This document shows, one piece after another, positions 51 through 43,641 of a DNA stretch of 64,000 nucleotides. Every line of letters starts with the position of its first letter. The first letter of the stretch is position 1. The stretch lies in the IMG/VR virus record IMGVR_UViG_3300020202_000070, positions 1 to 64,000 of that record; one strand, written 5' to 3'. The notes below the pieces were generated by a model. The model had not been told where the DNA came from, did not search any database, and saw only the letters and a program-made list of their open reading frames with translations. The stretch comes from a virus. The position numbers and the translations under genes are program-made.

Positions 51-668
51 ATGGCCCGCAAGTCCCCCAAGCCCACCCCGCCCAGCTTTCTCCAAGACGC
101 CATCGCCGGGATCGAGGGCCAGACTGCCCCGACGCCCAGCACGCTCGACATCCTCGCCGCACAGGCCGCGGCCGCCCCCGCCGACGACACCCTCCAGCTG
201 GTCTATGCCGACTGTCTGGACGAGCACGACAAGGCGGTCGAGGCCGCGACGATCCGCGCGGCCGTCAGCATCCGCCAGGCCGCCCGCGCCAAGATGGCCG
301 CCCTCCAGTCGGCCGCTGCGGAGGCGCGGGCGGCGAACGTCGCCGCGTACCGGGCGCTGGCCCTGGAAGGTGTCGCCCAGGACGATCCGGCCTACCCCGT
401 CTGCCTCTTGCTCGCGCGATCCATCACCGTCGGCCGCGAGTCCGACGGCTACCCGACGGTCAACATCCCCGATCCCGTGAAGGCGATGCTCCGCCAGGCG
501 CGGAACGCGGGCATGATCCGGTGCGAGGCCGGGTACATCTACTGCGGCAAAATCAAGATGCACTCCGACGCGTCCGGGCTCGTGGGCGAGTACCCCGCGC
601 AGGCGGCCGACTACCAGGCGTGGCGCGAGGCCGACCGCTACCACGACGACAACAAGGCCGTGCTGTGA
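51..668 (+). CDS. TIGR02996-like domain protein, start uncertain
   Basis: A 205-residue protein from the ATG at 51. A degenerate TIGR02996 core, APADDTLQLVYADCLDE, lies near residues 41-57, so the protein belongs with the planctomycete repeat-companion family, whose role is unknown. The rest is Ala/Arg-rich helix followed by a C-terminal region with two cysteines. The reading frame stays open to the left edge of the window and no ribosome binding site precedes the ATG, so the gene may start further left. A strong hairpin follows the stop codon. Confidence 0.6.
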   Translation: MARKSPKPTPPSFLQDAIAGIEGQTAPTPSTLDILAAQAAAAPADDTLQLVYADCLDEHDKAVEAATIRAAVSIRQAARAKMAALQSAAAEARAANVAAYRALALEGVAQDDPAYPVCLLLARSITVGRESDGYPTVNIPDPVKAMLRQARNAGMIRCEAGYIYCGKIKMHSDASGLVGEYPAQAADYQAWREADRYHDDNKAVL

Positions 669-1945: not shown

Positions 1946-3463
1946 TCACACGGCGTTGCGGACGGCGACCTTCCCCTGCACGACCGCCACACTTCCCGTG
2001 CTCAGGGTGACGGCGCACTCGACGAGCACGTCGGAGCCGGCCGAGCCGCCGGCGAGCGTACACTGCACGCCCTTGCCGGCGGCGACCGTATTGCCGTCGC
2101 CGTCGATCACCGCGGCGGCCGAGAGCACCGCGGGCGTGCCGGCGACGAGGCCGGAGAGCGCCTGCCCGCCCGGCCCGGAGACGACGGCCGAGCTGATGGT
2201 CGCGCCGGCGACGACCTCCGGGAAGTTGGTGAAGTCGAAGACGAACAGCACCACTTCCGTGGGCGTCTTCGTGCGCGTCAGGTAGGCCAGGCTCGCGGCA
2301 CTCATCCTCGGAACCCTCTTGAAGAGCCGGCTCGTGTCGGCCCGGCGGAACCGGCCGCCGGGCCGGGTCGCGACCGTCGGCGGGATCGCCCCGGCCGCCC
2401 AGCCCGTCAGCACGAGCGCCCGGCCGCGGGCGATCCAGTCCGGCGGCGGCGCCTCGGCCCACGCCACGAGCACGCGGCCGGGGAGTTGCTGCGCGTCGAG
2501 GTGCAGGAGCGGCAGGCCGCGGAGGGTGAGCGCCCGGCCCTCCGGCGGCGCGTGCGGCCCGGCCAGCGCGACGAGCGACACCGTCGGCCGCGGCGGCGGC
2601 GCCACCTGGACCCACGCCCGCAGGAGCGCAACGGCGCCCCCCGCGGGCGGCGGGTCGGCGGGGCGGACCAGGAGCGGCCGGCCCGGCGGCGACGTGTGGA
2701 ACACGACGCGCAGGGAGACGGCCCGGCCCGGCTCCGGCGGCGGCTCCTCGGCGCGGGCGAAGTGCGGCCGGAGCACGTACCGGTCGGACGGCACCCGCGG
2801 CCACTGGCGGACGTAGCACCGGCCGGCGAACGGGACCGGCTCCTCGGCCGCGGCCACGCGAGTCACGCCGGCGGGCTGCTGCGGGCTCAGGTCCGGCGGC
2901 GGCGACTTCGCGACGGTGGCGCGGCCGGGTGCGGGCGTTCGCACCTCGGGCGCGGCCACGAGCGCGCGGACCGGCCGCGGCGGCACCGCGAAGCCCGCGC
3001 CGGCGGGCCTCGTCACCCGGCCGCGCTCCGGGGGCGGTTCCTCGCGGGCCGCGACGGTGACGACGGTGCGGCCGGTCGGGGTCGGGCCGAACGGCGGCCG
3101 GGCGCCGCTCTTGGCGACGCGGCCCGGTTCGGGGTGCGGCTCCTCGGCCGCGGCGACGACGGGGGCGGTCGGGCGCCGGACGGGCTGCACGAGGCCCCAC
3201 GGGGCCTGGGTGACGCGGCCGGGGAGCAGGTCGGGCGGCGGGTGCTCCGGCTGCCGGAAAACGCGCGCGGGGCCGGGCGGCTGCGGGACGGCGACGAACC
3301 CGCCGACGGGCGAGACGACGGCGCGGCCGGCCAGGGCGAGCGGCTCGAAGGCTTCCGTCGGGCGGAAGACGAGCACGCGGCCGGGGGCGCCCTGCGGCGT
3401 GACGGAGTCCGGCGGCGGGGCGGTGACGAGCGGGCGGCGGGGGCCGAAGACGACGCGGCGCAC
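1946..3463 (-). CDS. proline-rich repeat protein with fibre-adaptor-like C-terminus
   Basis: A 505-residue frame in two parts. Residues 1-370 repeat a degenerate unit of 25-30 residues around PPPExGR with hydrophobic beta segments between, like a stiff fibre. Residues 387-505 resemble phage fibre-tail adaptor domains (TEVVLFVFDFTNF, Gly/Ala/Val-rich beta sequence). An internal ATG at 2305 has a good binding site (GAGGG, 8 bases upstream), so the 119-residue C-terminal domain may also be made on its own. It starts 4 bases from the TIGR02996 gene stop upstream, so the two are coupled. Confidence 0.6.
   Translation of the reverse strand: MRRVVFGPRRPLVTAPPPDSVTPQGAPGRVLVFRPTEAFEPLALAGRAVVSPVGGFVAVPQPPGPARVFRQPEHPPPDLLPGRVTQAPWGLVQPVRRPTAPVVAAAEEPHPEPGRVAKSGARPPFGPTPTGRTVVTVAAREEPPPERGRVTRPAGAGFAVPPRPVRALVAAPEVRTPAPGRATVAKSPPPDLSPQQPAGVTRVAAAEEPVPFAGRCYVRQWPRVPSDRYVLRPHFARAEEPPPEPGRAVSLRVVFHTSPPGRPLLVRPADPPPAGGAVALLRAWVQVAPPPRPTVSLVALAGPHAPPEGRALTLRGLPLLHLDAQQLPGRVLVAWAEAPPPDWIARGRALVLTGWAAGAIPPTVATRPGGRFRRADTSRLFKRVPRMSAASLAYLTRTKTPTEVVLFVFDFTNFPEVVAGATISSAVVSGPGGQALSGLVAGTPAVLSAAAVIDGDGNTVAAGKGVQCTLAGGSAGSDVLVECAVTLSTGSVAVVQGKVAVRNAV
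2928..2945. repeat. dispersed 18-bp palindrome copy
   Basis: GGTGCGGGCGTTCGCACC, one of the scattered copies of an 18-bp near-palindrome; here it is translated as VRTPAP within the repeat protein. Confidence 0.75.
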
Positions 3464-3466
3464 GGG

Positions 3467-4039
3467 TCAGCCCTCCCCGACTTCGTCGGCCGGGGCGTAG
3501 AAGCGGACGCCGGCCGGCCCGGCGCCGGCGGCCCAGAGTTCGATCGCTCCGCCGGGATCGCCGACGGTGTCACCTTGCGGGTAATCGACCACCCCGCCCG
3601 GCGCGGTCTCAAATGTCAAAAGCAGCACGCCGGACGAGCGGCGCAGATCGACGCGGATCAAGGCCCGGTCGCCGACGCCGTAATCGCAACTGAACACCTT
3701 GCGCCCGACCAGCCGGACGCGGCCGCCGCCGGACGGCCGGAGCCGGAACAGCGGCCGGGCGAGCGGGAAGAGTCGCACGACGGCCCCGAAGTTTGCGGCC
3801 CGCGGGCCGGTCCCGTCGGTGCTGTAGGTCGGGAACGCGTCGAGCGGCTCATCGACCGGCGGGTACAGCAGCGTCAGCACGTCGGCCGGCTCCGCCCACC
3901 GCACGTACTCCGCCCGCCCGTCGTCGCGGTCCTGGAGCCAGTCGGCCAACACGAGCCGGTGCGTCCGCTCCTCCGGCTCGGCGCACATCCGCGCGAGGAA
4001 GCTGTCGAGGTCGGCGGCGTCGAGGGTGGCGAGCGGCAT
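3467..4039 (-). CDS. TIGR02996 domain protein
   Basis: A 190-residue protein. The N-terminal 50 residues carry a clear TIGR02996 domain (RTHRLVLADWLQDRDD). The C-terminal 130 residues are beta-rich and unassigned, ending in VRFYAPADEVGEG. It lies inside the late block just upstream of, and probably translationally coupled to, the fibre-like repeat gene, so it may be a virion or assembly component, although the family is not known to be structural. Confidence 0.65.
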   Translation of the reverse strand: MPLATLDAADLDSFLARMCAEPEERTHRLVLADWLQDRDDGRAEYVRWAEPADVLTLLYPPVDEPLDAFPTYSTDGTGPRAANFGAVVRLFPLARPLFRLRPSGGGRVRLVGRKVFSCDYGVGDRALIRVDLRRSSGVLLLTFETAPGGVVDYPQGDTVGDPGGAIELWAAGAGPAGVRFYAPADEVGEG

Positions 4040-4061
4040 GGCGGAAGTATACCCTCCGCCG

Positions 4062-4514
4062 TCAGGCCGAGTGGCGGCCGCGGAGGGCGGCGCGGTGGTG
4101 CAGGTGGCGGGGCAGTTCCTCGTGCCGCTGAATTCGCTCGTCGTAGCGCAGGTAGTGGTCCCGCGACGCCGCCTCGGAAGGCGGGTAGAAGACCAGCTCG
4201 CCGTTCTCCTCGCGGCGGTCCCACTTCGCGACCCCTTCCGGGAGCGGGCTCTCGACGCGGAGAAGGGGGTCGGCGGCGTCGGCGTCGATCAGGTGCAGCG
4301 AGTGGACGCGGTGGTCCTCGGTGAGGACGTAGTAGAAGTAGAACGTCCGCGGCCCGCGCAGGTGCGGGTTGTACTTCGCGCCCTTGCATCGGCACTCCAT
4401 CGGCAGGCCGGGGAAGACGAGCCACCGCTCGCCGCACTTCGGGCACGTCCAGTTATCGGGCGGCCCCAGGTGGTCGAAGGTGGGCGTCGGCGGGTTGAGC
4501 AGTTCGGCGGACAC
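4062..4514 (-). CDS. zinc-ribbon hypothetical protein
   Basis: A 150-residue protein read from GTG 4514, whose start lies 2 bases after the TGA of the upstream gene (4517-4519). A zinc ribbon WTCPKCGERW followed by ECRCKG lies at about residues 18-45, then a beta-rich region and a His/Arg-rich tail. No enzyme motif is seen. The tight spacing argues for translational coupling. Confidence 0.55.
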   Translation of the reverse strand: MSAELLNPPTPTFDHLGPPDNWTCPKCGERWLVFPGLPMECRCKGAKYNPHLRGPRTFYFYYVLTEDHRVHSLHLIDADAADPLLRVESPLPEGVAKWDRREENGELVFYPPSEAASRDHYLRYDERIQRHEELPRHLHHRAALRGRHSA

Positions 4515-4516
4515 GC

Positions 4517-4987
4517 TCACTCCTCCAGCGGCAGCCCGGAGACGCCCAGACCCTCGGCGTAGAGCGCGTGAAGGACGTCGTTCCAGTAATCGCGGCGCAC
4601 CCTGAGCACCGGAACGCCGTCGTCGTTCGCGAGTCCGCCCGCGGTGGCGCCGCCGAAGAGCGACGGAACGATGCGCGTGACGAGCTTCCGCTCGGTGCCG
4701 GTGAGCGTCGCCGGGTCGAGCTTCTCGGCCCTCTTCGCCCACGCATTGAGGGCGGCCGCGACCCGTTCGGCGTCCGACCCGGCGAAGAGCACCCACTCGT
4801 CGAAGCGGTCGGTGAAGTAGACGACATGCTCGGACAGCCGCGGCAGACCGTTGCGCTGCGGGGCCGCGAACAGGTCTGGCCGGACGACATTGCGGTCGTC
4901 GTCGTGGTAGCCGGACCCCTTGACCGACTCCAGCACCTTCGCCTTCGTCCGGACGGCGTCGGCCCGTTCGACCAGCTTCGCACTCAT
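4517..4987 (-). CDS. hypothetical protein of the late block
   Basis: A 156-residue protein from ATG 4987 with a purine-rich site (GGGAGCGG) upstream. It is acidic/basic mixed and soluble, with no recognised motif. It is the first gene left of the homing endonuclease insertion. Its upstream region is shared back-to-back with the endonuclease promoter. Confidence 0.55.
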   Translation of the reverse strand: MSAKLVERADAVRTKAKVLESVKGSGYHDDDRNVVRPDLFAAPQRNGLPRLSEHVVYFTDRFDEWVLFAGSDAERVAAALNAWAKRAEKLDPATLTGTERKLVTRIVPSLFGGATAGGLANDDGVPVLRVRRDYWNDVLHALYAEGLGVSGLPLEE

Positions 4988-5031
4988 CACCGCTCCCGCT
5001 TGACTGAGATGGGGCGACCCGCACCCGCCGC

Positions 5032-5076
5032 TATAATGAGCGAGCCGGGCGGGTGCTGGTAACACCCGTCCGGCTC
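5032..5076 (+). promoter_or_regulatory. promoter-like TATAAT and leader hairpin of the homing endonuclease
   Basis: A perfect TATAAT at 5032-5037 is followed by a 14-bp stem (5042-5055 with 5063-5076, one G-T wobble, loop CTGGTAA). The nearest TTGACT (5000-5005) is 26 bases away, too far for a standard -35. The hairpin would sit at the very start of the transcript, 30 bases ahead of the endonuclease start codon. Confidence 0.5.
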
Positions 5077-5106
5077 TGACCACAACCCGTATGTGAGGTA
5101 CGAGTC

Positions 5107-5685
5107 ATGGCTACGAGCCAGTCTATCCCGCCCTTTCCGTCCGACATCGACCGCGACGCCTTCGGGCACTGGCTGTCGGGCTTCACCGACGGCGAGGGCA
5201 ACTTCAAGCTCACCTGGCACCGCACCAAGCCGCGCGGCCCACGCGGCACGATCTACACTGTGCCCGGTGCGCGATTCGAGATCGGCGTGCGGGACGACGA
5301 CTCTGCGGTCATCGAACTGATCCGGTCCTACTTCGGCGTCGGCCGCCTGGCAACGCGACCGGCCAGGGGCAACCACAAGCCGCTCATTCGGATCATGGTC
5401 GCCAGCGCCGCCGATCTCATGGCCGTCGTCGTCCCGCACTTCGACCGCTTCCCGCTGAGGGCGAAGAAGCGGCGAGATTACGAACTCTGGCGACGGGGCG
5501 TCGCACTACTCCACTCCGTTCTCATCCGCCCGTCGATCCCGCGGACCGACGGCATTCGGGGCACGCGTCCGAAGTGGACGCAGGACGAGCGAGAAGAGTT
5601 TCACCGCCTCTTTCTCGCAGTGAAGGCGGTCCGCGAGTACCCGTGCGCGCCTACTCCTCGCCGACCAGCCCCCCGCTGTAGTTGA
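5107..5685 (+). CDS. LAGLIDADG homing endonuclease, free-standing
   Basis: A 192-residue protein with one LAGLIDADG motif, LSGFTDGEGNF, at residues 23-33, followed by the usual beta saddle (YFGVGRL near residue 77). Single-motif members work as homodimers that cut long DNA targets and spread their own gene. A GAGG site lies 8 bases before the ATG. The gene is on the opposite strand to the late operon it interrupts, and its 3' end overlaps the next leftward gene by 35 bases. No intron boundary is visible, so it looks free-standing. Confidence 0.85.
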   Translation: MATSQSIPPFPSDIDRDAFGHWLSGFTDGEGNFKLTWHRTKPRGPRGTIYTVPGARFEIGVRDDDSAVIELIRSYFGVGRLATRPARGNHKPLIRIMVASAADLMAVVVPHFDRFPLRAKKRRDYELWRRGVALLHSVLIRPSIPRTDGIRGTRPKWTQDEREEFHRLFLAVKAVREYPCAPTPRRPAPRCS

Positions 5686-12631: not shown

Positions 12632-13843
12632 GTGAGCGACGAAGCCGCCCTGCTGGCCGCCATTCTCGCGTTCCCCGACGAGGACACGCCGCGGCTGATC
12701 TACGCCGACTGGCTGCAGGAGCACGGCCAAGAGGAGCGGGCGGAGTTCGTCCGCGTGCAGTGCGAGCTGGCGAAACTGCCGGAGCCGGAAGAAGTCACCA
12801 TCTTCCGCGCCGACGGTGGGCCGGTGTGCAAGGCGTGTATGCGCGTCCGCGGCGGAAGCGGGTTGTGTCGCTATCACGAACTCGGCCGCCGCGAGCGGGA
12901 GTTGCTCCGCGATTGGACTCGCGCGCTGTTGGAGCCCCGGCCCCCGGGCATGTACAGCTTCATGGGCGACGGCAGTTTGGGCTGGGGCACTCCCAGCGGC
13001 GACATCCCGGTCGAGTTCCGCCGCGGCTTCGTGGAGTCGCTCACCTGTACCGCCGCCGACTGGTTCACGCACGGCGACACGATCCGCGAGCGGCACCCGG
13101 TCACGCGCATCACGCTGACGACGCGACCGCGACTCTTGGAAGACGCGGACGGTGCCCTGCTACTCGGCGACCTGCGCTCCCTGTGGATCGCCTGGACGGA
13201 AGTGGCGAAGCACCACAGCGACGACGACCCGATGCCCGACCGCTGGCTGCTGGCGTTCCTGCGCTGCCGCTGGCCGGGGGCCGAGTTCGAGGTGCCAGAG
13301 CGAGTCGCCGGCGTCGATCCCGCCAGCTCGGAGGGCGACTTCACCGCCATGTACGAAGCCGGCGCGGCCGCCGCGATGCAGCAGGAGCAGGCGGTGATGG
13401 ACGCGTTCCTCGGCGCCGACGCGCCCGGCAAGGGCTTGCCCGTTGCCGGCTGGCTGATGGAGCCGGTGGCCGTCGGCAACCTCCGCGGCATGCGAATGAG
13501 CGTCACGGTTCCAGGACCGGCGGTTACGCACGCGGAAGGCTCGCGGTTCGGCCCGGTGCGGGGCGTGACGATCACCGGCGCGGAGCACCGCTGCCGCGCG
13601 AGGCTGACGGAGGTGGTCGAACTGCTGGGGTTGACCACGTACCGCGCGATCTCGGAAGGAGTGGTGGAGGCGATCCCAGCGACGAACCAGGCCGAGTTCA
13701 ACGCGATGGTGGGCGGCATCCTGGAGCACATGATCACGCAGGACGGGCTGCTGCCGGGGCCGGACGACGAGGAGGATGAGGACGGGGACGACGAAGAGGG
13801 CGACGGCACCGGCGGCGCCGACGAGCACCTCAGCTACCCGTAG
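12632..13843 (+). CDS. TIGR02996 domain protein
   Basis: A 403-residue protein from GTG 12632, one base after the previous stop. Residues 4-45 are a textbook TIGR02996 domain (EDTPRLIYADWLQEHGQ). A small cysteine cluster (CKACMRV, then GLCRYH) follows at about residues 67-82. A middle region resembles the Gemmata type 'GFVESLTC' companion, and the tail is very acidic. It runs head-on into the MuF gene with a 14-base overlap. Rightward cargo within a leftward operon. Confidence 0.7.
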   Translation: MSDEAALLAAILAFPDEDTPRLIYADWLQEHGQEERAEFVRVQCELAKLPEPEEVTIFRADGGPVCKACMRVRGGSGLCRYHELGRRERELLRDWTRALLEPRPPGMYSFMGDGSLGWGTPSGDIPVEFRRGFVESLTCTAADWFTHGDTIRERHPVTRITLTTRPRLLEDADGALLLGDLRSLWIAWTEVAKHHSDDDPMPDRWLLAFLRCRWPGAEFEVPERVAGVDPASSEGDFTAMYEAGAAAAMQQEQAVMDAFLGADAPGKGLPVAGWLMEPVAVGNLRGMRMSVTVPGPAVTHAEGSRFGPVRGVTITGAEHRCRARLTEVVELLGLTTYRAISEGVVEAIPATNQAEFNAMVGGILEHMITQDGLLPGPDDEEDEDGDDEEGDGTGGADEHLSYP

Positions 13844-26437: not shown

Positions 26438-26635
26438 TCAGCTCCCCTCCACGATGTGCGGCGTGTCCGCCTCCCCGCTGTCGGGCGGCGCACCGTCGAG
26501 CTGCACGAGGTACTTCCACGACCCCTTCGGCCAATTCACCTTGAGTACCACCCTGCCGTCGGCCCGGTACTCAAGCACTTCCCAGGACGTGCAGCCGTGG
26601 AAGTGCCGCGCGACGAACGCTTCGATGTCGCTCAT
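26438..26635 (-). CDS. small hypothetical protein
   Basis: A 65-residue protein from ATG 26635, overlapping the TIGR02996 gene stop (ATGA). One helix then beta strands (VVLKVNWPKGSWKYLV). Unrecognised. Confidence 0.5.
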   Translation of the reverse strand: MSDIEAFVARHFHGCTSWEVLEYRADGRVVLKVNWPKGSWKYLVQLDGAPPDSGEADTPHIVEGS

Positions 26636-27450
26636 ATCTGCTGGCCCTCGATCTCCCCACCGAGCAGTTCCTCCGGCCCCGGCCAGCGGTCGCCGGCGCG
26701 GCGCTGCAGGTCGAGCGCGACGGAGAGCGACAGCGCCGGCAAGAGGCGGGCGTCGCCGCACAGCTCCTCGCGGGAGAGCCCGTCGGGCCGCTCGGCGGCG
26801 GTCGGGCTGATCGCCGTGAGCCGCGTGGGCTGCGTGGGCCGGCCCGCGACCCCGGCGACGAGCGCGGCGTTGCGCGAGGGCAACTCCAGGTCGCCCGCCA
26901 GCCGCCAGCCCGGCGCGTCCGGCCCCGCGATCGTGAGCACGAGCCCCGGCACGTCGAGCACCTCGATCCGCTCCAGCGGGCACACCGCGAGCACCGCCGC
27001 CCCGACGCGGCGCCACTCGGCGAAGGTCAGCCGCAGACCGCAGAGCATGCCGCGCTCGTACACGGCCCGCGGGCCGACCGTGTGGCGCGGCAGCAGGCTC
27101 TTGCCGCCGACCCAATCGGGCATGTGCGCCGCCGTGAGCCGGTCGGGCTTGTAGGCGTCCTGGTCCCACGCGACCCGCTCCCACTCCCAGCCGAGCACCG
27201 CCTTGAGCTGGGCCGCGAGCGCCCGCGGCCCCGTCTCCTCCAGGTCGCGGGCGGCGTCGAAGAACATGCCGTCGGTCACCGGCTCCGTGCCGCGGAAGCG
27301 GCTGAGCGTCACGCCGGCCCACACGAAGCGGCCGAGCTGTCGCACGGCGGGGGTGTCGCTCTCGCGCAGGTGGTCGGCGTAGACCAGGCGCGCGGTGTCG
27401 TCCGCCGGCTGGGCGAGGCAGTGCGCGAGGAGTGTAGCGCGGTCGGTCAT
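26632..27450 (-). CDS. TIGR02996 domain protein
   Basis: A 272-residue protein. Residues 5-45 hold the TIGR02996 core (DDTARLVYADHLRESD). The rest resembles the leucine-rich companion region found after this domain in Gemmata proteins (ERIEVLDVPGLVLTIAG). It is the first of two such genes in the early block. Function unknown. Confidence 0.65.
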   Translation of the reverse strand: MTDRATLLAHCLAQPADDTARLVYADHLRESDTPAVRQLGRFVWAGVTLSRFRGTEPVTDGMFFDAARDLEETGPRALAAQLKAVLGWEWERVAWDQDAYKPDRLTAAHMPDWVGGKSLLPRHTVGPRAVYERGMLCGLRLTFAEWRRVGAAVLAVCPLERIEVLDVPGLVLTIAGPDAPGWRLAGDLELPSRNAALVAGVAGRPTQPTRLTAISPTAAERPDGLSREELCGDARLLPALSLSVALDLQRRAGDRWPGPEELLGGEIEGQQI

Positions 27451-34710: not shown

Positions 34711-35718
34711 TCACTCCCGTCGGTCCACTTCGAGCAACTGCCACAGCGCCCAGTCCGCGGCGGTCCACTCCTCGGCGTCCTGCTGCAGGTGAGCGATCAG
34801 CTCCGGGTGGTCGCAGCCGGCGTCCTGGAGCGCGTCGGCGAGGATCGGCATCCGGTCGAAGGCGCGCTCGGCGACGATGCCGCGGGCCAGCGCCACGGCC
34901 GTGGTGGTCCGCCAGGCCGGATCGAACTGCAAGTCCCGCGGGCCGCATGCGTGCCGGTAGGTGGCGTAGAGCCACCGCCAGCGCTGCTTTTGAACGTACG
35001 CCGCGTCCGCCGCGTCCGCCGCGTTCGCCGCGAACGCCGCGTTCGCCGCGTACGCCGCCGCGTTCGCCGCGAACGCCGCGTTCGCCGCGTACGCCGCCGC
35101 GTTCGCCGCGAACGCCGCGTCCGCCGCGTTCGCCGCGTACGCCGCCGCGTTCGCCGCCGCGTCCGCCGCCGCGTCCGCCGCGTACGCCGCGTTCGCCGCC
35201 GCGTCCGCCGCCGCGTCCGCCGCGTACGCCGCGTCCGCCGCCGCGTCCGCCGCCGCGTCCGCCGCGTACGCCGCGTCCGCCGCCGCGTTCGCCGCGAACG
35301 CCGCGTTCGCCGCGTCCGCCGCGTACGCCGCCGCGTTCGCCGCGAACGCCGCGTCCGCCGCGTTCGCCGCCGCGTCCGCCGCGTCCGCCGCGTTCGCCGC
35401 GAACGCCGCGTTCGCCGCGTACGCCGCCGCGTCCGCCGCGTACGCCGCGTCCGCCGCGTCCGCCGCGTACGCCGCGTCCGCCGCGAACGCCGTAATCACC
35501 TTCTCGGCCGCTTCGATGGCTTCGCGCGGCCGGAGGTCTTTCGGAAACCTGGCCTCGAAGATCGGCAGCACGCGCCAGGCGTCCTCGACGGCCCGGCGCG
35601 CCCACTCGAAGGCCAGCAGGCGCCGCACGGCCGGCGGGAGCTTGGCGAGCGCGGTGCGGCGCTCCTGCCACTCGTCCCAGGTCCAGCCCTTCGGCAGCTT
35701 CTCGGTTCGCGTCGCCAT
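34711..35718 (-). CDS. alanine-rich repeat protein
   Basis: A 335-residue protein from ATG 35718 (GGAG upstream). N-terminus: [17 protein letters not shown] then [20 protein letters not shown]. Residues 75-240 are almost only Ala with Asp, Asn, Tyr and Phe, in 3- and 5-residue steps ([15 protein letters not shown]). The C-terminus ends in [20 protein letters not shown], a module often seen in Gemmata proteins. The organisation resembles immunity-type proteins with long Ala repeats in toxin-linked loci, but no toxin gene is adjacent. Function unknown. Confidence 0.65.
34997..35491. repeat. 495-bp low-complexity tandem repeat
   Basis: Units of GCCGCGTTC, GCCGCGTAC, GCCGCGTCC and GCCGCGAAC alternate with no fixed order, producing the alanine-rich stretch. 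Because only a few triplets are used, other frames are also open here and give Arg-rich shadow proteins. Confidence 0.85.
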
Positions 35719-35720
35719 GC

Positions 35721-36271
35721 TCACTCCTTCTGCTGGCCCTCGCGCCGGGCCGCGTCCGCGCGGGCCTTGCACCGCGAGAGCAGCTCGTACTCGATGGCGT
35801 CGGTGCCGTGGCGGGCCACCACCTCGGCGTAGCCGGGGCCGGCGTGCCAGTCGCCGATCACGGTCTTGAGCTTCGGCCGGCCGAGATCATCGACGCGCCA
35901 CGTCACCTTGCTCGCACCTTCCCCCTGGTCCTCGTCGGGGTCGTCCTCGCCGCGGTCCACCGTGTCGATGCCCGAGAGCATGTGGTCGAGCAGGGCCTCC
36001 CGCTGGCCCGGCCGGAGCTGCTCGTACTCGGCCCCGTCGATCACCAGCTCGGCGTCGTACTCCTTCGTGAGGCGGTCCTTGAGCGGCACCGGCCGGATGT
36101 GCGCCAGCACCTCGTACCCGTTGCGCTTTTGAGCGCCGGGCCGTCCGGGTTGCGCGCCAGAAGCACGCCGACGCGCACCTCGGCGGCACGGAGCCGCGGG
36201 TGGTAGCGGGCCATGACGCGCGCGAGGAGGGTGAGCACGTCGGGGTCGGCGAGCGAAAAGGTCGTCGGCAT
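35721..36271 (-). pseudogene. putative phage metallopeptidase gene, frameshifted
   Basis: The N-terminal part (from ATG 36271, FSLADPDVLTLLARVM) and the C-terminal part (AHIRPVPLKDRLTKEYDAEL to the stop at 35721) are in different frames joined at an A4 run (36127-36130 on the plus strand). Adding one A restores a single protein of about 180 residues that resembles phage putative metallopeptidases. The expected zinc motif reads LLDHMLSGID instead of LLDHELCH, so catalysis looks lost. Deletion, programmed -1 slippage or sequencing error would each explain it. Confidence 0.55.
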
Positions 36272-36647: not shown

Positions 36648-37823
36648 CTATTCCGAGATCGTGACCGGCCGGCGCTTCCAGTGCATCGGGGGGCCGATTC
36701 CGCTCCACCAGTCGTTGTCCTTGTCGCCGCCGAAGTTGCGGTTCACGATCTGGCCGGTGCCGTTCTTGCCGAGGGCGGCCTTCGCGTCCCGGATCGTCGA
36801 GGGTGCGAACTGTGCCTGCCGGCCCGCCTCCTCGATCTCGGCCGAGGGGTAGGCGTACTCCTTCAGGAATCCGAGCAGCCACGCCTTGCACTGGTCGAGC
36901 TTCGACGCGGCCGGCGACTTACCCGCCTCGCGCCCGCTGGTGTCGATCCCGTCCTGCGCCGGCCCCAGCACCCAGCGACAGCACTCCTTCTGGAAGGTGA
37001 GCGGGACGGTCTGGTCGGCGAGGTCGCGGCCGGTCATGAACAGCTTGGCCGTGTCGCTGCCCCGCTCACGGTCGAGCACCCACAGCGTGTCGGCCGCGCC
37101 GCTGATGCCGAGGGTGCCCGACAGCTCGTCGAACGGGTCTTCCGCCCTCAGCTTCCGCGTGTGGTGGATGAGCAGCCCCGACGCCCCGTAGTAGTCGAGC
37201 AACTCCTTCAGCCCGCCCACCGCCTCGTAGTCCTCCTGGTAGCTGTTCCCGGCGCCCTTCGGCGGCTGCCGGAACTTCGCCAGCGTGTCCACGATCACCA
37301 GCCGCGCCGGCGCCGCCCTGTTCGCTTCGAGCCACTCGGCGAGGTAGTACAGCCCCCGCTGCTCCTCGGTGGCCCGCGGCCAGCGGGTGTGCAGCGTCAG
37401 CCCCGCCGGCGGCACCCAGCCGAGCCCCTGCGAGAGCGTGAGGAGGCGAGACTTCAGCCGCGGCCGGGTGTCCTCCATCGCCAGGTAGATCACCGCCCCC
37501 GGCGTCGCCGTCCGGCCGTCGAGGTCGTGCTCGCCCGCGACCGCCCAGCCGATGAGCAGCGACAGCCAACTCTTGCCCTGCTTGGGTCGCCCGCCGAGCA
37601 CGGTCAGCCCCTCGGGGAGCAGGCCGTCGATAGCGAACCGCGGCGGGGGGAAGTCGGTGGCGACCAGGTCGGCTGCCGACAGGCCCGGCCCCGGCGAGCC
37701 GTCGGCCGCCTGCGCCTTGCGCCAGGGCGGCGTCTCAGCCGGCTTGCCGTTCGTCTCCGTCGGACGCCCCGGTCCGCCCCCCAATAGCTGCTTCGCCCTC
37801 GCTGTCGTTGTTCCGGGCGGCAT
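36648..37823 (-). CDS. RepA-like RecA-fold helicase/ATPase
   Basis: A 391-residue ATPase. Walker A is GGRPKQGKS at residues 78-86, a Walker B-like VIVDTLAKF lies near residue 175, and IHHTRK is a sensor-like motif near residue 220. This is the arrangement of RSF1010 RepA-type and phage AAA_25 proteins that load or unwind DNA for replication. The C-terminal 100 residues hold a helix-turn-helix-like end (APSTIRDAKAALGK). It starts inside the previous gene (89-base overlap). Confidence 0.75.
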   Translation of the reverse strand: MPPGTTTARAKQLLGGGPGRPTETNGKPAETPPWRKAQAADGSPGPGLSAADLVATDFPPPRFAIDGLLPEGLTVLGGRPKQGKSWLSLLIGWAVAGEHDLDGRTATPGAVIYLAMEDTRPRLKSRLLTLSQGLGWVPPAGLTLHTRWPRATEEQRGLYYLAEWLEANRAAPARLVIVDTLAKFRQPPKGAGNSYQEDYEAVGGLKELLDYYGASGLLIHHTRKLRAEDPFDELSGTLGISGAADTLWVLDRERGSDTAKLFMTGRDLADQTVPLTFQKECCRWVLGPAQDGIDTSGREAGKSPAASKLDQCKAWLLGFLKEYAYPSAEIEEAGRQAQFAPSTIRDAKAALGKNGTGQIVNRNFGGDKDNDWWSGIGPPMHWKRRPVTISE

Positions 37824-38307: not shown

Positions 38308-38568
38308 TCAGTTCGCCTCCGGGCTCTGCCCCAGCCAGCTCACCAGCTCCTTCGCCTGCTCGGCGGTCATCGCCGGCAGCCGGCCCGTCGGGGCGCAGCC
38401 CTGGCACACCGGCCGCAGGAGGCCGTCGGCGACGTGCCTGGCGGTCGCGGGCGAGGCGATCACCTTCACCCGGCAGCAGGAGCAGCGGAGCGTCTTCGAG
38501 CCGGGCGGGGGCGGCATGTCGGCCGGAGCGTCCTTCACGCGGACGCAGAGCACCGGGTGTGCGTCCAT
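38308..38568 (-). CDS. small zinc-finger protein
   Basis: An 86-residue protein from ATG 38568, sharing one base with the exonuclease stop (TGATG). Zinc site from CSCCRVKV and VCQGCAPTG. Coupling to the exonuclease suggests a recombination helper. Confidence 0.55.
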   Translation of the reverse strand: MDAHPVLCVRVKDAPADMPPPPGSKTLRCSCCRVKVIASPATARHVADGLLRPVCQGCAPTGRLPAMTAEQAKELVSWLGQSPEAN

Positions 38569-39311
38569 CAGATCACCTCCGCCGCGAACCGCTCGTCGGC
38601 CGCCGGAGCGGCCTTCGCCGCTTCCGCCGCGAGCGCCTCGCGGGCTTCGAGCACCTCGAACCAGAACCGCGCCGCCTCGGTGTAGAGCCACGCCTGCTGG
38701 TCCGGGTCGGCCGCGACCGGCACCACCGCCAGCCAGTCGGCCGGCGCCTCGGGCCGCGACCGCTCCGGCAGCGCCCGCCACTCCTCCCACGCGACCGCGC
38801 CCGCCGGCGTGAAGCGTTTCGAGGGGTTGAACGTGGCGAAGTCGGCGCGACTCAGGCCGCACACCAGGAGCTGCCACTGGACCTGCGCCGCGTAGTAGTC
38901 GGGCACCACGCCCGCGAGCGCCGCGGAATGCACCTCCCAGCTCGGGCACTTCAGTTCGAGCAACCAGTCGAGCCGCTCGCCGGGCAGCACCGCGCCGTTC
39001 GTACACAGCCCATCCAGGCTGACGCGCGCCCACGGGCAACCCAGCATCTCGACGCAGCACGGCGGGGCCGGGAACCGCGTGCGGAGCGTGTACAGGTGGC
39101 GGGCGTGCGGCTCCAGGACCGTGCCGCGGTACATCGCGCCGTTGACCGGTCGCTCCCACGCGCCGATCTTCTCGCGGAGCACGTTCGCGCGGGTCGCGTC
39201 CTCGAAGGGCGCGAGGCCGACGACGGCGGCGATGTCGCTGCCGCCGACCCCGGCTTGCCTCCAGGCGCGCCAAGCGTCGGTTCCCTGCGCGAGGTCGCGG
39301 ATGATGTTCAT
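38568..39311 (-). CDS. YqaJ/lambda-type recombination exonuclease
   Basis: A 247-residue nuclease of the PD-(D/E)xK class. It shows GGSDIAAVVG at residues 23-32, EPHAR near 67, the catalytic Asp of VSLDGL near 100, ELKCPSWEVH at 119-128 (Glu and Lys of the active site) and VPDYYAAQVQWQLLV near 138. It resects double-stranded ends for phage recombination. It is the gene immediately downstream of the CRISPR-like array on the leftward transcript, with only 38 bases between them. Confidence 0.88.
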   Translation of the reverse strand: MNIIRDLAQGTDAWRAWRQAGVGGSDIAAVVGLAPFEDATRANVLREKIGAWERPVNGAMYRGTVLEPHARHLYTLRTRFPAPPCCVEMLGCPWARVSLDGLCTNGAVLPGERLDWLLELKCPSWEVHSAALAGVVPDYYAAQVQWQLLVCGLSRADFATFNPSKRFTPAGAVAWEEWRALPERSRPEAPADWLAVVPVAADPDQQAWLYTEAARFWFEVLEAREALAAEAAKAAPAADERFAAEVI

Positions 39312-39349: not shown

Positions 39350-39824
39350 CCTGCACCTTCGCGATGTTCGGCCGCGAGGTTCAGGGCGGCGGACATCCGG
39401 TGGCGGCAGTTCGGACAGCACCTGCACCTTCGCGATGTTCGGCCGCGAGGTTCAGGGCGGCGGACATCCGGTGGCGGCAGTTCGGACAGCACCTGCACCT
39501 TCGCGATGTTCGGCCGCGAGGTTCAGGCGGGGTAGGTGGCGAGCGCGTGCTCCTTCACCTGCTGCCTGCACCTTCGCGATGTTCGGCCGCGAGGTTCAGG
39601 GACAAGGACAACGAGCCGCGCGTCTGCCCCAAGTGCCTGCACCTTCGCGATGTTCGGCCGCGAGGTTCAGGCAGCCCGTGCAGGGCCCTGGTGCTCGCAG
39701 CCTGCTGCCCCCTGCACCTTCGCGATGTTCGGCCGCGAGGTTCAGGCATCCCAGACGAAATGGGAAAATGGCAACTGGAAGCCTTTGGCCTGCACCTTCG
39801 CGATGTTCGGCCGCGAGGTTCAGG
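39350..39824. CRISPR. CRISPR-like array, seven 36-bp repeats
   Basis: Seven identical 36-bp repeats start at 39350, 39421, 39492, 39565, 39636, 39711 and 39789. Spacers are 35, 35, 37, 35, 39 and 42 bp; the first two are identical and the others differ. Each repeat is nearly a full inverted repeat: CCTG/CAGG ends, ACCT/AGGT, then CGCG/CGCG around a 9-base loop (ATGTTCGGC), with one mismatch and one bulged T. No repeat is degenerate, so the leader end is unclear. If transcribed leftward with the TnpB/Cas12-like gene, the leader would lie at 39825-39972. Confidence 0.88.
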
Positions 39825-39972
39825 GGTCCGCGCCGGAAGCGCCCGCCCTGAAACGGTTTTGGGGACTTCTGGCGAGCGGCACCCGGCGGCCCGCGCCGGA
39901 CCTGACCCGCCCTCGGCTTTGCAGTAGCCGCAACATGCTGTGACCTCAGCAAGTAGGTTTACGCGAGAGGTA
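39825..39972 (-). promoter_or_regulatory. gap between effector gene and array, candidate leader
   Basis: 148 bp with no gene, somewhat less GC-rich than its surroundings. On the minus strand it runs from the effector stop to the first repeat. No convincing promoter, anti-repeat or terminator could be picked out by eye, so it may be a leader on a shared transcript. Confidence 0.35.
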
Positions 39973-41295
39973 CTACGCTTCGCTCTCGCCCGCATCCGCT
40001 TCGGACGCATCGTGTTGGAACGCTAAACCCTCCTCGTTGCACAGACACCGCAACCGCTCTCGCAGCGCGTGCCACGGCAGGCTCGGTACGAACGATCGCT
40101 CCGCGTCGCGGTAGACGAGTACCCCGCACCGCTGCCGCCGGGCGAACCCGACGACCGCCGCGGCGATCTGCTTCAGCTCCGAGTCGATCCGCCCGTGCTG
40201 CCGTTCGATGTGCGCCGCGGCCCCGCCCGCGACCATCCGGCGGCGCTTCCGGGCCGGCCACCGCTTCTCGTGCTTCATGTCGTTGCGGTAGCGAGCGAGC
40301 CAGCGGGTGTGACCGTACACGGCGCCGCGCACCTGATCGCCGGAGATGACGAACGGGTCGCGGTCGGGCACTTCGACGGTAATCAAGTTCTCGGCGCCGG
40401 TCGTGACCGTCGCGACGCGCTCGGTCTGTTGCGGCGCCGGGGTGCGCGGAAATCGCCCCGCGATGATCGCCTTGACCCCGACGACCCGGCCGCCGCGCGA
40501 GACGGGTACGAGCTTGAGGTCGGCGCCGCGGGCCGCGCCCGTCACGAGGGCGTCGAAGTCGCGCAACTGCCACTTGAGTTCGGGCGAGCGGTCCAGTTCC
40601 AGGAGATACCGCCCGCCGAGGAGCGGCACCGCGACGCGCGGGATGCGCCCGCCGGGGTCGTCGTGCCAGCCCGCCCACCAGTCGCCGGCGCGGATGGGGA
40701 AGGGGTACGGGTAGCCGAACACCATCGGCCGCGCCTTGCCCTGCCAGAGCACCGCCAGCCGGCCGAAGCTCTTGTGCCCCTTCCAGGCGTCCTCGACGGC
40801 CGTGAGGACCGTCAGCGCGCTGCCCGTCGCACCGTCCCACAGTTGCCGCCACGCCAGCGGCATCACCGACTGGTCGTTCCACAGGGAGTACAGCGTGCCG
40901 ACCTGGGGCGCCTTCGGGTCGGCGCCCTTGCGCTTGAGCCTGCGCTTGAATGTGCCGAACATGGCGGCCGGGTCGTACTTCGGCAGCGTTTCCATCTCCG
41001 GGGTGCGGCGCACGTCCCGGCGGGCCAGTTCGCGGATCGCCCAGTTGGCGAGGTCGGTCGCGGCCCGCCACGCCGGGTGGAAGTGCCGCAGGAACCCCTC
41101 GGTGAACTCCACATCGTCGCCCCGCGCGTCGAGCCGGCCGACCACCCGCGCCACCGGCAGCGAGATCGCCCGCACGCAGTAGTCCGCCGCCAGACAGGCT
41201 CCGCAGATGGGGCCGCCGTAATCCTTCCACCCGCGCGGCAGGCGATTGGAGACGACTTCGGCCGCACAGCGGGCGCAGGCGAACGCACGGCTCAT
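39973..41295 (-). CDS. compact TnpB/Cas12-like protein, probably nuclease-dead
   Basis: A 440-residue protein. Residues 7-34 hold an added zinc finger (CARC then CGAC). Residues 40-280 fit the helical and wedge regions of TnpB/Cas12. Residues 294-430 align with the TnpB RuvC core: VTTGAENLITV stands where (I/V)G(I/V)D(V/L)G is expected, DPFVISGDQV where PFIINGxxL is usual, then a basic bridge-like helix (RWPARKRRRM), GVLVYRD at RuvC-II and FVPSLPWHALRERL. The RuvC-I Asp is missing, the RuvC-II Glu is unclear, and the chain ends before the zinc ribbon and RuvC-III Asp. It likely binds guide RNA and DNA without cutting. Confidence 0.72.
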   Translation of the reverse strand: MSRAFACARCAAEVVSNRLPRGWKDYGGPICGACLAADYCVRAISLPVARVVGRLDARGDDVEFTEGFLRHFHPAWRAATDLANWAIRELARRDVRRTPEMETLPKYDPAAMFGTFKRRLKRKGADPKAPQVGTLYSLWNDQSVMPLAWRQLWDGATGSALTVLTAVEDAWKGHKSFGRLAVLWQGKARPMVFGYPYPFPIRAGDWWAGWHDDPGGRIPRVAVPLLGGRYLLELDRSPELKWQLRDFDALVTGAARGADLKLVPVSRGGRVVGVKAIIAGRFPRTPAPQQTERVATVTTGAENLITVEVPDRDPFVISGDQVRGAVYGHTRWLARYRNDMKHEKRWPARKRRRMVAGGAAAHIERQHGRIDSELKQIAAAVVGFARRQRCGVLVYRDAERSFVPSLPWHALRERLRCLCNEEGLAFQHDASEADAGESEA

Positions 41296-41858
41296 CGCGG
41301 CACCTCCACACGGCTCTCCAGGTCCGCCGCCGCGTTCTTGAGCGCCGCCACCGCGGCCCGCGGGGCGCAGTGACCCGTGTAGTACGCCTGGCCCGTGCGG
41401 TCGAAGAGCACCAGGAAGAACATCGGGTCGGCGACGCCGCGGGCGGCCAGCGCGTCGAGCAGCACCGGGCGCAGCGCGTCGAGCAGCGCCTCGATCTCGG
41501 CCTGCGGGGTCGCTTCGAGGGGGCGCGGCCCGGGCGGTTCACTGCCGGCGAGTTGCACCGCCCGCTCGTGCCCGGCCTCCGCCTCGGCGAGGGTGTAGTA
41601 CCGCTGTTGAAAGTCCGCGTGCGGGCCGCCGAAGATCATCGTCTCGAAGAGAACGGGCCGACCGTCTTCGCGGGAGCTGTGGTCGATGCCGAGGAACACG
41701 GTGGAAACCGTGACGCCGCCGGGCAGCTCGGTCCGGCCGACGATCTGGCCGCCCTCGTGGAACGGACGGCGAGCCCCGGCCGATTCGATCCAGCTCGCCA
41801 TCTCCACGAGGTGCGACGGACGGAAGCTCCCGTCGCCGGTGGGAACGTAGTACCTCAT
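41292..41858 (-). CDS. small phage protein of unknown function
   Basis: A 188-residue protein from ATG 41858, overlapping the effector start by ATGA. It has the pattern STVFLGIDH then LFETMIFGGPHADFQQRYY, and AEAEAGHERAV, which recurs in small phage proteins of unknown role. The overlap makes co-translation with the effector likely. Confidence 0.6.
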   Translation of the reverse strand: MRYYVPTGDGSFRPSHLVEMASWIESAGARRPFHEGGQIVGRTELPGGVTVSTVFLGIDHSSREDGRPVLFETMIFGGPHADFQQRYYTLAEAEAGHERAVQLAGSEPPGPRPLEATPQAEIEALLDALRPVLLDALAARGVADPMFFLVLFDRTGQAYYTGHCAPRAAVAALKNAAADLESRVEVPR

Positions 41859-42046
41859 TCCGCCGCTCCTTCCCGCCGGCACACCCGGCAGCACAGCCTC
41901 ACGCCCGGCCGCAGCCCGGCCCGGTCGCCGCGGGCGGCCCGGCAGGCGTAGTGCCCGCAGCCGAGCTTGGCGATCACGAGCCGGCTGCCGGCCTTGTTGG
42001 TGATGAGCTTCTGGCCGGCGACGGGCCGGCGGGGTTTGCGCCTCAC
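41855..42046 (-). CDS. small zinc-binding protein
   Basis: A 63-residue protein from GTG 42046 in a GTGA overlap with the ATPase stop. Cys/His residues in GCGHYACRAARG and LCCRVCRREG suggest one zinc site. Unknown role. Confidence 0.5.
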   Translation of the reverse strand: MRRKPRRPVAGQKLITNKAGSRLVIAKLGCGHYACRAARGDRAGLRPGVRLCCRVCRREGAAE

Positions 42047-43515
42047 GTCGTCGCTCCTTCCTTCGCCGCCTTGTTCGCGGCCCGCTTGTCGCGCCGGGCC
42101 TGCTTCTCGTTCGCCACCTTCGTCAGCGCCTCGAACAGCTTGAGCGCCGCCGACGGCATCAGCCCCGGCACCTTCAGCGTGGGGCTGGGCACGAACCCGC
42201 AGTGCCTCGCGATCCCGCCGCCCTCGCACGGCCGCAGCTCGGCGTCGAGCTTGTCGTCGCGGACCTGAGTCCAGTCGAGGCCGGTGGCGTCGCCGAACAG
42301 GCCGACGATGCGCTTCACGATGTCGCCGCCGGCGAAGTTGGGTTTGGGCTGCGCCGCGGTGGCGCCGCTCGCGGACGCTTCGGTGCGCCGCTCGGCCGCG
42401 GGCATGGGCTTGGACTCAGCCTTCGCCGGCGTAGAGGTCGCCGCAGAACTTGCAGGCGCGGCGGTACTCGTAGCCGTGGACGGGGCAGAAGGGGTCGTGG
42501 CGGGAGGGTCCGCGCGCTGCTCACCCTCCCCGTCGAGCGGCGGGCCGTCGGCGCTCATGCGCTGGAGTTCGGCGAGCTTCGCCTGCGTCTCGGCGTCGGC
42601 CGCGGTCAGTGCCGCCTTGCGGGCGTCCTTCCGCTTGCCGAGCTGGTCGATCTGGAAGGCCGTGAGCCGGCCCGCCTTCGCGTCGGCGTTCACCTTCTCC
42701 ATGACGCCCCTGAGCGCCTCGATCGAGGCCGCGGCGTCGATGGCCCTGCCGTGGGCGTCGCCGAGTTCCCCCTGCGAGAGCGGGGCCGCGACCGGCTCGG
42801 CGGACAGCCACCAGTCGAACAGCGGCCGCCAGAACTCCGGGCCGGGTTTGGTGCAGCTCTTGTTGTCCATCGCCGAGCAGCCGCGGACCTTCTCGACGTG
42901 CGCCTCGTGGCCGGCGTCGAGGCGCAGCACGCAGTCGAACTCGTACTCGGTGTTGTCGCGCTGGTCGGTCTTCATGCCGACCTTCTTGATCTGCGCCCGG
43001 CCGTTGCCGTCCACCGTCCGCTCGTACTCGCTCTTCACCCGCATCGTGACGATACAGTGCGCCCGCAGGTCGGTGAGCGTGGTGAGCATGGTCCGCTGTT
43101 CGGGGGTGACCTTCGCCCACCCGCCGAACTTGTCGCCGCGGTTGGCGCGGGCGTACTCGTCCACCTTCTCCATCGCCCCGTGCCAGGCGTGGGAGAGGGA
43201 ATCGAAGATGATGAGGTCGAAGCCCTGGCCGACGAGGTACTCGTAGCACTCGGCGTAGCCGGCCGGGTTCTGCTTGTCGTGCGGGATGGCGCACGTCTCG
43301 TACTGCCAGGTCTCGCCGTCGATGTGGACGCCGTCGTAGAGGCCCGCCGACTCGTTCTCGCTGTCGGCCACCACGATCCGCTTGCCGATCCCCGCGCGCC
43401 GCATGGCGAACGCGAGGCGCAGGGCCGTGTACGTCTTGCCCGAGCCGGAGAGGCCCTCCAGGCTGATCTTGAGCGGGCGGCGCTGGCGCTTCGCCTTCTT
43501 GACCTCGAAGGACAT
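42043..43515 (-). CDS. RecA-fold ATPase (phage AAA/Sak-like)
   Basis: A 490-residue protein from ATG 43515. Walker A is EGLSGSGKT at residues 20-28, then VVADSENESAGLYD, and Walker B is LIIFDSLSHAW near residue 100. The core resembles phage RecA-like single-strand annealing or recombination ATPases often found beside a YqaJ exonuclease. The C-terminal 250 residues are low-complexity Ala/Pro/Thr-rich sequence with a small domain at the end. Starting further upstream would read through the tRNA-like gene. Confidence 0.75.
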   Translation of the reverse strand: MSFEVKKAKRQRRPLKISLEGLSGSGKTYTALRLAFAMRRAGIGKRIVVADSENESAGLYDGVHIDGETWQYETCAIPHDKQNPAGYAECYEYLVGQGFDLIIFDSLSHAWHGAMEKVDEYARANRGDKFGGWAKVTPEQRTMLTTLTDLRAHCIVTMRVKSEYERTVDGNGRAQIKKVGMKTDQRDNTEYEFDCVLRLDAGHEAHVEKVRGCSAMDNKSCTKPGPEFWRPLFDWWLSAEPVAAPLSQGELGDAHGRAIDAAASIEALRGVMEKVNADAKAGRLTAFQIDQLGKRKDARKAALTAADAETQAKLAELQRMSADGPPLDGEGEQRADPPATTPSAPSTATSTAAPASSAATSTPAKAESKPMPAAERRTEASASGATAAQPKPNFAGGDIVKRIVGLFGDATGLDWTQVRDDKLDAELRPCEGGGIARHCGFVPSPTLKVPGLMPSAALKLFEALTKVANEKQARRDKRAANKAAKEGATT

Positions 43516-43568
43516 GGTCAGACTCCGAAACTGAGGAACGGGAACCGGAACACGCAGGAACAACCCAG

Positions 43569-43641
43569 AACGACCGCCGAGAATTGAACTCGGCCCTCCG
43601 CCCTGCTGGCAGGCGGCGCTCTTCCGCTGAGCTACGGTCGC
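43569..43641 (-). tRNA. tRNA-like gene with enlarged anticodon arm
   Basis: The minus strand folds as a cloverleaf: acceptor GCGACCG/CGGTCGT, D arm GCTC-AGCGGAA-GAGC, T arm CCGAG-TTCAATT-CTCGG. The anticodon arm is 19 rather than 17 bases: stem CCGCC/GGCGG around the 9-base loop TGCCAGCAG, or a 6-bp stem around GCCAGCA. A GCC (Gly) or CAG (Leu) anticodon is possible, but the usual T at position 33 is absent in the second reading. No encoded CCA. Confidence 0.6.

What the first reader, a model, noticed from the sequence alone, without database searches (positions are those of the whole stretch)
39350..39824. Repeats fold into an almost full-length hairpin
The 36-bp repeat pairs end to end (CCTG/CAGG, ACCT/AGGT, CGCG/CGCG) around a 9-base loop. 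Typical type V repeats have only a short stem at the 3' end. A fully paired repeat looks more like class 1 or a protein-binding site and might allow guide processing by host RNase III or by the small effector without a tracrRNA. No anti-repeat was seen nearby.
Basis: seen in the sequence. Interest (0 to 1): 0.62.

Follow-up and report, generated by a model that had tools for sequence, protein, structure and literature searches.

The report
Phage CRISPR array with dead Cas12f-like protein
A virus that probably infects planctomycete bacteria carries a small CRISPR array whose repeat can fold end to end, next to a shortened Cas12f-like protein that has lost its DNA-cutting residues; a second virus has the same pairing of protein and array, so this looks like a phage guide system that binds DNA instead of cutting it.

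Summary
Seven identical 36-bp repeats (39350-39824) fold on either strand into a 13-pair hairpin joining first and last base. It is only moderately unusual in this 72% GC sequence (3/200 shuffles; about 1.2% of random window 36-mers close end to end). The inference "more like class 1" is not supported. The neighbouring 440-aa gene (39973-41295, minus), an orphan in every single-sequence library search, belongs to a small family found here in another virus contig (L118) and two Planctomycetia genomes. A profile of the family hits Cas12f structures (E 3e-9), and the L118 homologue's model matches AsCas12f (Foldseek about 1e-16, VIA Z about 20) up to residue 363 only. The intact members lack the RuvC-I Asp, the RuvC-II Glu, the RuvC-III segment and the C-terminal zinc domain, so the effector is very probably nuclease-dead. 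L118 also has an array downstream, but its repeat folds as two hairpins and an anti-repeat-like stretch precedes it. The full-length hairpin is therefore not a family trait, and a tracrRNA-free guide is possible but unproven. Best reading: an adaptation-less, phage-borne, Cas12f-derived RNA-guided DNA binder. No protospacers were found.

The parts
39350..39824 (-). CRISPR array: 7 identical 36-bp repeats, 6 spacers; the proposed transcript is the minus strand (repeat CCTGAACCTCGCGGCCGAACATCGCGAAGGTGCAGG)
   Evidence: orientation inferred from the minus-strand gene order and from L118, where the array runs with the effector and the distal repeats are decayed
39350..39385 (-). repeat (distal end of the proposed transcript); the other copies start at 39421, 39492, 39565, 39636, 39711, 39789
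   Evidence: hairpin fold
39386..39420 (.). spacer 1, 35 nt, identical to spacer 2 at 39457-39491; minus-strand frame reads CCPNCRHRMSA
39528..39564 (.). spacer 3, 37 nt; minus-strand frame QQVKEHALATYP with GC3 of 1.0
39601..39635 (.). spacer 4, 35 nt; plus-strand frame DKDNEPRVCPK with GC3 of 1.0
39672..39710 (.). spacer 5, 39 nt
39747..39788 (.). spacer 6, 42 nt, 50% GC (lower than the other spacers)
39825..39972 (-). 148-nt non-coding gap between effector stop and array: presumed leader; no anti-repeat above chance and no unusual fold
   Evidence: local alignment score reached by 83/100 shuffles; z 0.55
39973..41295 (-). 440-aa Cas12f/TnpB-like effector, predicted nuclease-dead and C-terminally truncated; N-terminal CxxC...CxxC; its start overlaps the stop of the upstream gene
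   Evidence: coding GC3 0.91; homologues; profile to Cas12f 3e-9; fold of the L118 homologue
38568..39311 (-). YqaJ/RecE-type exonuclease gene directly downstream of the array on the same strand
41292..41894 (-). 200-aa protein of unknown function, overlapping the effector start by 4 nt (likely same operon)
42043..43515 (-). AAA_24 / Sak4-like ssDNA annealing protein of the same recombination module

Best explanation
This is a phage-borne, adaptation-less relative of type V-F CRISPR. A nuclease-dead, C-terminally shortened Cas12f-like protein and its array are transcribed together on the minus strand inside the phage recombination operon. The pre-crRNA is cut within or beside the repeat stem, the repeat-derived stem serves as the protein-binding handle, and the complex binds matching DNA, blocking transcription or replication of competing phages, plasmids or host genes instead of cutting it. 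SHOWN (in silico): array, hairpin, the protein's Cas12f/TnpB kinship, loss of catalytic positions and of the C-terminal domain, recurrence of protein plus array in a second virus. INFERRED: co-transcription, RNA binding, guide processing, DNA binding and silencing. In this phage the end-to-end repeat may make a separate tracrRNA unnecessary; in the relative L118 a tracrRNA-like anti-repeat is present.
For: Homologues: L118, 32% identity, E 5e-28; L116 E 5e-10 and the broken L117 E 4e-10; direct BLAST of the window protein against L118 3e-26 and L116 6e-19. The family profile hits Cas12f 9nzq E 3e-9, Cas12f1 9i8y 7.6e-5 and several TnpB/Cas12f chains; the three-row profile still gives 1.3e-7. 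The model of the L118 homologue (mean pLDDT 67) matches Cas12f with Foldseek 1.2e-16 and VIA Z about 20, above TnpB (13), Cas12k (13) and Cas12m (12). Alignment with AsCas12f stops at residue 363; stop codon, ParB-like gene or array follow with no coding zinc ribbon. Catalytic positions: window VTTGAENL, L116 CRTTGDAF, L118 VMPGEECL where Cas12f has GVDLG/GVDMG; the Glu of IQMEDL aligns to R or L. L118 has a seven-copy array 3' of its effector on the same strand, with the copies farthest from the effector decayed. No Cas1 in either virus record. Precedents for binding without cutting: Cas12m (PMC11013384) and several inactivated type V subtypes (PMC12669027).
Against: No RNA data; no sigma-70-like promoter found; no protospacer for any spacer in phages, plasmids or 392 Planctomycetota genomes, and no hit of a codon-degenerate spacer-6 pattern in viral contigs, so target and PAM are unknown. 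L116 has a homologue but no array within its 5-kb contig. The window protein itself was only folded alone and badly (pLDDT 38); the usable model is of its relative, is of moderate confidence, and its RuvC half is the weaker part.
Confidence: 0.62

Rival explanations
1. Same dead Cas12f-like system, but guides are made the usual V-F way: a tracrRNA pairs with the repeat and RNase III or the effector cuts; the hairpin in the window repeat is incidental to a GC-rich near-palindrome and the tracrRNA was simply not recognised.
For: L118 has an anti-repeat-like stretch, including the 10-mer TCGGGAATGC, just upstream of its array; 0/100 shuffles reach the score and it is the best of 442 segments of the locus. 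Cas12f enzymes use tracrRNAs (established knowledge). Repeats this stable are common in the window, and most repeats do not keep their own hairpin in the modelled full transcript.
Against: The window gap has no anti-repeat above chance and no unusual fold.
Confidence: 0.42
2. tracrRNA-free guide: the repeat's own end-to-end stem replaces the crRNA:tracrRNA duplex, and RNase III or the effector cuts it.
For: 13-pair hairpin on both strands; no anti-repeat in the window; Cas12m shows that a small Cas12 can process pre-crRNA without a tracrRNA (PMC11013384).
Against: The shape is not conserved in L118; the hairpin is weakly kept in the modelled array transcript; the closest relatives by fold are tracrRNA users (established knowledge).
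Confidence: 0.3
3. The array is a phage decoy or mini-array used by, or against, a host CRISPR system (borrowed host Cas proteins, RNA anti-CRISPR, or a crRNA-sequestering dead Cas protein as proposed for phage Cas9c).
For: Viral mini-arrays, single repeats and a RuvC-dead phage Cas9 with such proposed roles are described (PMC11656645). The repeat might match an unsampled host.
Against: No related arrays in 102 Gemmatales genomes, only isolated single weak hits; six spacers exceed the one or two of mini-arrays; an own effector sits next to the array here and in L118.
Confidence: 0.13
4. The repeats are DNA-binding sites (iteron- or parS-like inverted repeats) for a phage protein and not an RNA feature.
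For: Near-palindromic 36-bp sites; a ParB-like gene lies between effector and array in L118 and a ParB_N protein is encoded in the window.
Against: Intervals are sequences of varying length (35-42 nt), several reading as codon-like fragments with high GC3; the L118 repeat is not a full-length dyad; the recurrent partner is a Cas12f-like protein.
Confidence: 0.07

Closest known systems
Type V-F CRISPR, Cas12f (AsCas12f, SpCas12f1, OsCas12f)
   Same: Cas12f fold over nearly the whole protein (VIA Z 18-20, Foldseek 1e-16 to 1e-12); compact single effector next to an array; anti-repeat-like stretch in L118
   Different: RuvC-I Asp, RuvC-II Glu, RuvC-III segment and C-terminal zinc domain missing; an extra N-terminal CxxC...CxxC; no tracrRNA found in the window; phage-borne without Cas1
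dCas12f (PDB 9n9c, 9n9m)
   Same: nuclease-dead Cas12f; matches the L118 model at Z 17.5 over 187-191 residues at about 3 A
   Different: To my recollection natural dCas12f works with a partner sigma factor; no sigma-factor hit in the neighbouring genes tested. Here there is a multi-spacer array in a phage recombination operon
Type V-M, Cas12m
   Same: small Cas12 with a degenerate RuvC that binds without cutting; repeats with two stems; own pre-crRNA processing without a tracrRNA (PMC11013384)
   Different: Clearly weaker structural match (Z 12 versus 20); Cas12m keeps its C-terminal RuvC part and zinc finger (PMC11013384)
TnpB and nuclease-dead TnpB-like regulators
   Same: shared TnpB/OrfB-type fold (Z about 13)
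   Different: Multi-copy CRISPR array next to the gene in two viruses instead of a single omega-RNA
Phage Cas9c with inactivated RuvC
   Same: phage-borne dead class 2 effector (PMC11656645, PMC12669027)
   Different: Cas9 family, proposed to act on host crRNAs; here Cas12f family with its own array

Membership tests
Type V-F (Cas12f) | Cas12f-type effector by sequence profile and fold | tested here: met
   profile E 3e-9; Foldseek 1e-16, VIA Z about 20 for the L118 homologue
Type V-F (Cas12f) | RuvC D-E-D catalytic triad | tested here: not met
   no Asp at RuvC-I and no Glu at RuvC-II in three intact members; alignment ends before RuvC-III
Type V-F (Cas12f) | C-terminal target-nucleic-acid-binding zinc domain (PF07282) | tested here: not met
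   no Pfam match in the window protein (one of five members weakly, E 0.027); no coding zinc ribbon after the stops
Type V-F (Cas12f) | CRISPR array adjacent to the effector | tested here: met
   window 39350-39824 and L118 4874-5290; absent beside L116
Type V-F (Cas12f) | tracrRNA with anti-repeat | tested here: inconclusive
   present-looking in L118, not detected in the window
Type V-F (Cas12f) | asymmetric effector dimer on one guide | not testable with these tools
   needs a complex prediction or biochemistry
Type V-M (Cas12m) | effector closest to Cas12m | tested here: inconclusive
   Cas12m chains align at Z 12 against about 20 for Cas12f
Class 1 (Cas6-processed repeat hairpin) | Cas6 and Cas5/Cas7 genes with the array | tested here: not met
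   adjacent genes are YqaJ, AAA_24, a Cas12f-like and an unknown protein; no Cas hit in the genes tested; distant genes of the window were not all scanned
Host-repeat viral mini-array | repeat identical to a host CRISPR repeat | tested here: inconclusive
   no array in 102 Gemmatales genomes; true host not known
dCas12f-sigma transcription systems | sigma factor gene next to dCas12f | tested here: not met
   Pfam on neighbours of the effector gives no sigma domain
Autonomous CRISPR-Cas with adaptation | Cas1 | tested here: not met
   PF01867 absent from the 65.9-kb record and from the L118 record, both possibly fragments; control genomes ring

The most novel reading that the evidence does not exclude
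A phage lineage has turned Cas12f into a stripped, nuclease-free, multi-guide DNA binder, with catalytic residues, RuvC-III and C-terminal zinc domain gone and a new N-terminal zinc knuckle. In the window's phage the repeat has become a self-complementary stem that makes the tracrRNA dispensable, a transition from tracrRNA-dependent to single-RNA guides within one family.
Probability: 0.27. Interest if true: 0.78.

Novelty: new variant of a known kind. Interest (0 to 1): 0.6.

Why it matters
It would be a virus-borne RNA-guided binder with fewer domains than the Cas12f structures it matches: about 390-440 residues with no C-terminal zinc domain and no complete RuvC domain. It would show how phages recycle CRISPR effectors as programmable silencers without cutting, and two relatives with different repeat architectures, one with and one apparently without an anti-repeat, would make the gain or loss of tracrRNA dependence directly testable. 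The window member is invisible to Pfam, NCBIfam, PADLOC and PHROGs, so such systems are likely missed by routine annotation.

Tried and rejected
Single-sequence searches of the effector: nothing in Pfam, PADLOC, PHROGs, NCBIfam, PDB, phages, plasmids, viral contigs or genome contigs. In 102 Gemmatales and 392 phylum genomes weak hits were checked and judged chance; the first true relatives appeared in 398 Planctomycetia genomes. A search alignment with invented variant rows (A1), used only to make degenerate patterns, found nothing and plays no part in the evidence. Exact-arm repeat pattern in viral contigs: none. Covariance model of the repeat: only isolated single hits in Gemmatales, no array. 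Protospacers: only chance-level matches; a codon-degenerate pattern for spacer 6 gave no hit. A 14-nt match of spacer 4 to the phage's own AAA gene (36712-36725) lies at the PAM-distal end in the proposed orientation and is probably coincidence. Rfam CRISPR-DR20 hit inside the effector gene (24 bits, gathering 42) rejected. Single-sequence AlphaFold of the window protein was uninformative. TIGR-Tas considered from memory and rejected: 36-bp repeats with 35-42-nt spacers do not resemble TIGR arrays as recalled. PF07282 search of five planctomycete genomes found none.

Full report
WHAT WAS CHECKED. The window is 64,000 of the 65,941 bases of one IMG/VR virus record. Its genes include terminase-like (by eye), YqaJ exonuclease, Sak4-like and integrase genes and several proteins with a domain typical of Gemmataceae; a stretch of that domain used as a query returned mostly Gemmata and other planctomycete genomes, so a planctomycete host is likely, though inferred.

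THE HAIRPIN. Folded alone, the repeat pairs from first to last base on both strands (-15.8 and -16.3 kcal/mol, z -2.7 and -3.0). In a 72% GC sequence this is notable but not extreme: 1.2% of random 36-mers of the window also close end to end with 12 or more pairs, and 9.7% are as stable. In a modelled full array transcript only two of seven repeats keep their own hairpin with high probability. The shape therefore deserves a test but cannot by itself assign the system to a class.

THE EFFECTOR. The gene upstream of the array on the minus strand (39973-41295, 440 aa, GC3 0.91) had no match in any library. BLAST in 398 Planctomycetia genomes gave two real relatives: a full-length one in L116 and a broken one in L117. 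The three-row profile then reached one virus contig, L118, with E 5e-28. The family profile finds Cas12f in the PDB (9nzq, E 3e-9; 9i8y, 7.6e-5; then further Cas12f/TnpB chains). A model of the L118 protein (mean pLDDT 67, five sequences) has Cas12f as its best matches by Foldseek (1.2e-16) and by VIA (Z 20.3, 261 residues), above TnpB, Cas12k and Cas12m. The rmsd over the whole length is large (8-14 A), so the two lobes are placed differently or uncertainly; over residues 37-249 the match to dCas12f is tight (2.9-3.1 A, Z 17.5).

WHY IT IS PROBABLY DEAD. The alignment to AsCas12f ends at residue 363 of a chain of about 420, before RuvC-III and the zinc domain, in a protein whose stop codon is followed by the array or by another gene; no coding zinc ribbon follows. 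At RuvC-I the Cas12f GVDLG/GVDMG motif is VTTGA (window), CRTTG (L116) and VMPGE (L118). At RuvC-II the Glu aligns with Arg or Leu, although a neighbouring Asp is invariant and could be an alternative. All three intact members share this. An N-terminal CxxC...CxxC is conserved and lies outside the Cas12f match.

THE SECOND LOCUS. L118 encodes the homologue (2799-3992), a ParB-like gene by eye (4006-4689; no Pfam hit) and an array of seven copies (4874-5290) on the same strand, with copies 6 and 7 decayed (4 and 10 mismatches). This places the older end away from the effector and supports transcription in the effector's direction. Read that way, the repeats of the two phages end alike (...AAGGTGCAGG and ...GGAGCGCAGG). 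The L118 repeat, however, folds as two hairpins, and the gap before its array holds an anti-repeat-like stretch, CCCGGGCTCTTCGGGAATGCCGGT (score 27, reached by 0 of 100 shuffles; best of 442 segments of the locus, though 27 also occurs elsewhere). The equivalent 148-nt gap in the window has none (score reached by 83 of 100 shuffles) and no unusual fold. So the full-length hairpin is not a family trait, and the question of tracrRNA is open for the window.

HOW IT MOST LIKELY WORKS. Effector, array and YqaJ gene lie in one direction; the effector start overlaps the upstream stop. I infer one transcript, guide RNAs cut from it, and a dead Cas12f-like protein that binds matching DNA and blocks transcription or replication. 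Several inactivated type V effectors act this way (Cas12m: PMC11013384; survey: PMC12669027), and phages use CRISPR parts against rivals and host defences (PMC11656645). Spacers 1, 3 and 4 read as codon-like fragments with high third-position GC and spacer 6 is lower in GC, which fits coding targets from more than one source; no protospacer was found. No Cas1 is present in either virus record, so spacers are presumably gained elsewhere or by recombination; the duplicated spacer fits recombination or slippage.

VERDICT. Observation confirmed; interpretation partly supported. The hairpin alone is of moderate interest. The larger result is a phage-borne, nuclease-dead, truncated Cas12f-like family with arrays that none of the searched libraries annotates: a new variant of a known kind. 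Steps shown here are all computational; RNA binding, processing and silencing are inference.

Noticed in passing
L118:2799-5290: Second virus contig with a homologous dead Cas12f-like gene, a ParB-like gene and a seven-copy array whose repeat folds as two hairpins and whose distal copies decay.
   Followed up: yes
L117:172-1205: A broken homologue of the effector (two pieces in different frames) sits in a planctomycete genome next to housekeeping genes; its RuvC-I region reads VRTDKD, so an ancestor may have kept an Asp near that position.
   Followed up: partly
L116:2096-3484: Intact homologue beside a D5-type primase gene but without an array on its 5-kb contig.
   Followed up: partly
window 34995-35492: Tandem array of 9/48-bp units encoding an Ala/Asp/Asn/Tyr-rich ([11 protein letters not shown]...) stretch inside the protein 34711-35772.
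   Followed up: no
window 43568-43641: tRNA-Leu (CAG) on the minus strand, just upstream of the Sak4-like gene; could be an attachment-site remnant or a phage tRNA.
   Followed up: no
window 36712-36725: First 14 nt of spacer 4 match the phage's own AAA_25 gene exactly; PAM-distal in the proposed guide orientation, so probably chance.
   Followed up: partly
window 51-668, 3467-4039, 12632-13843, 26632-27450: Several phage proteins carry the short 'RLVYADWL..' domain (TIGR02996-like) that is common in Gemmataceae genomes; its role in a phage is unclear.
   Followed up: no
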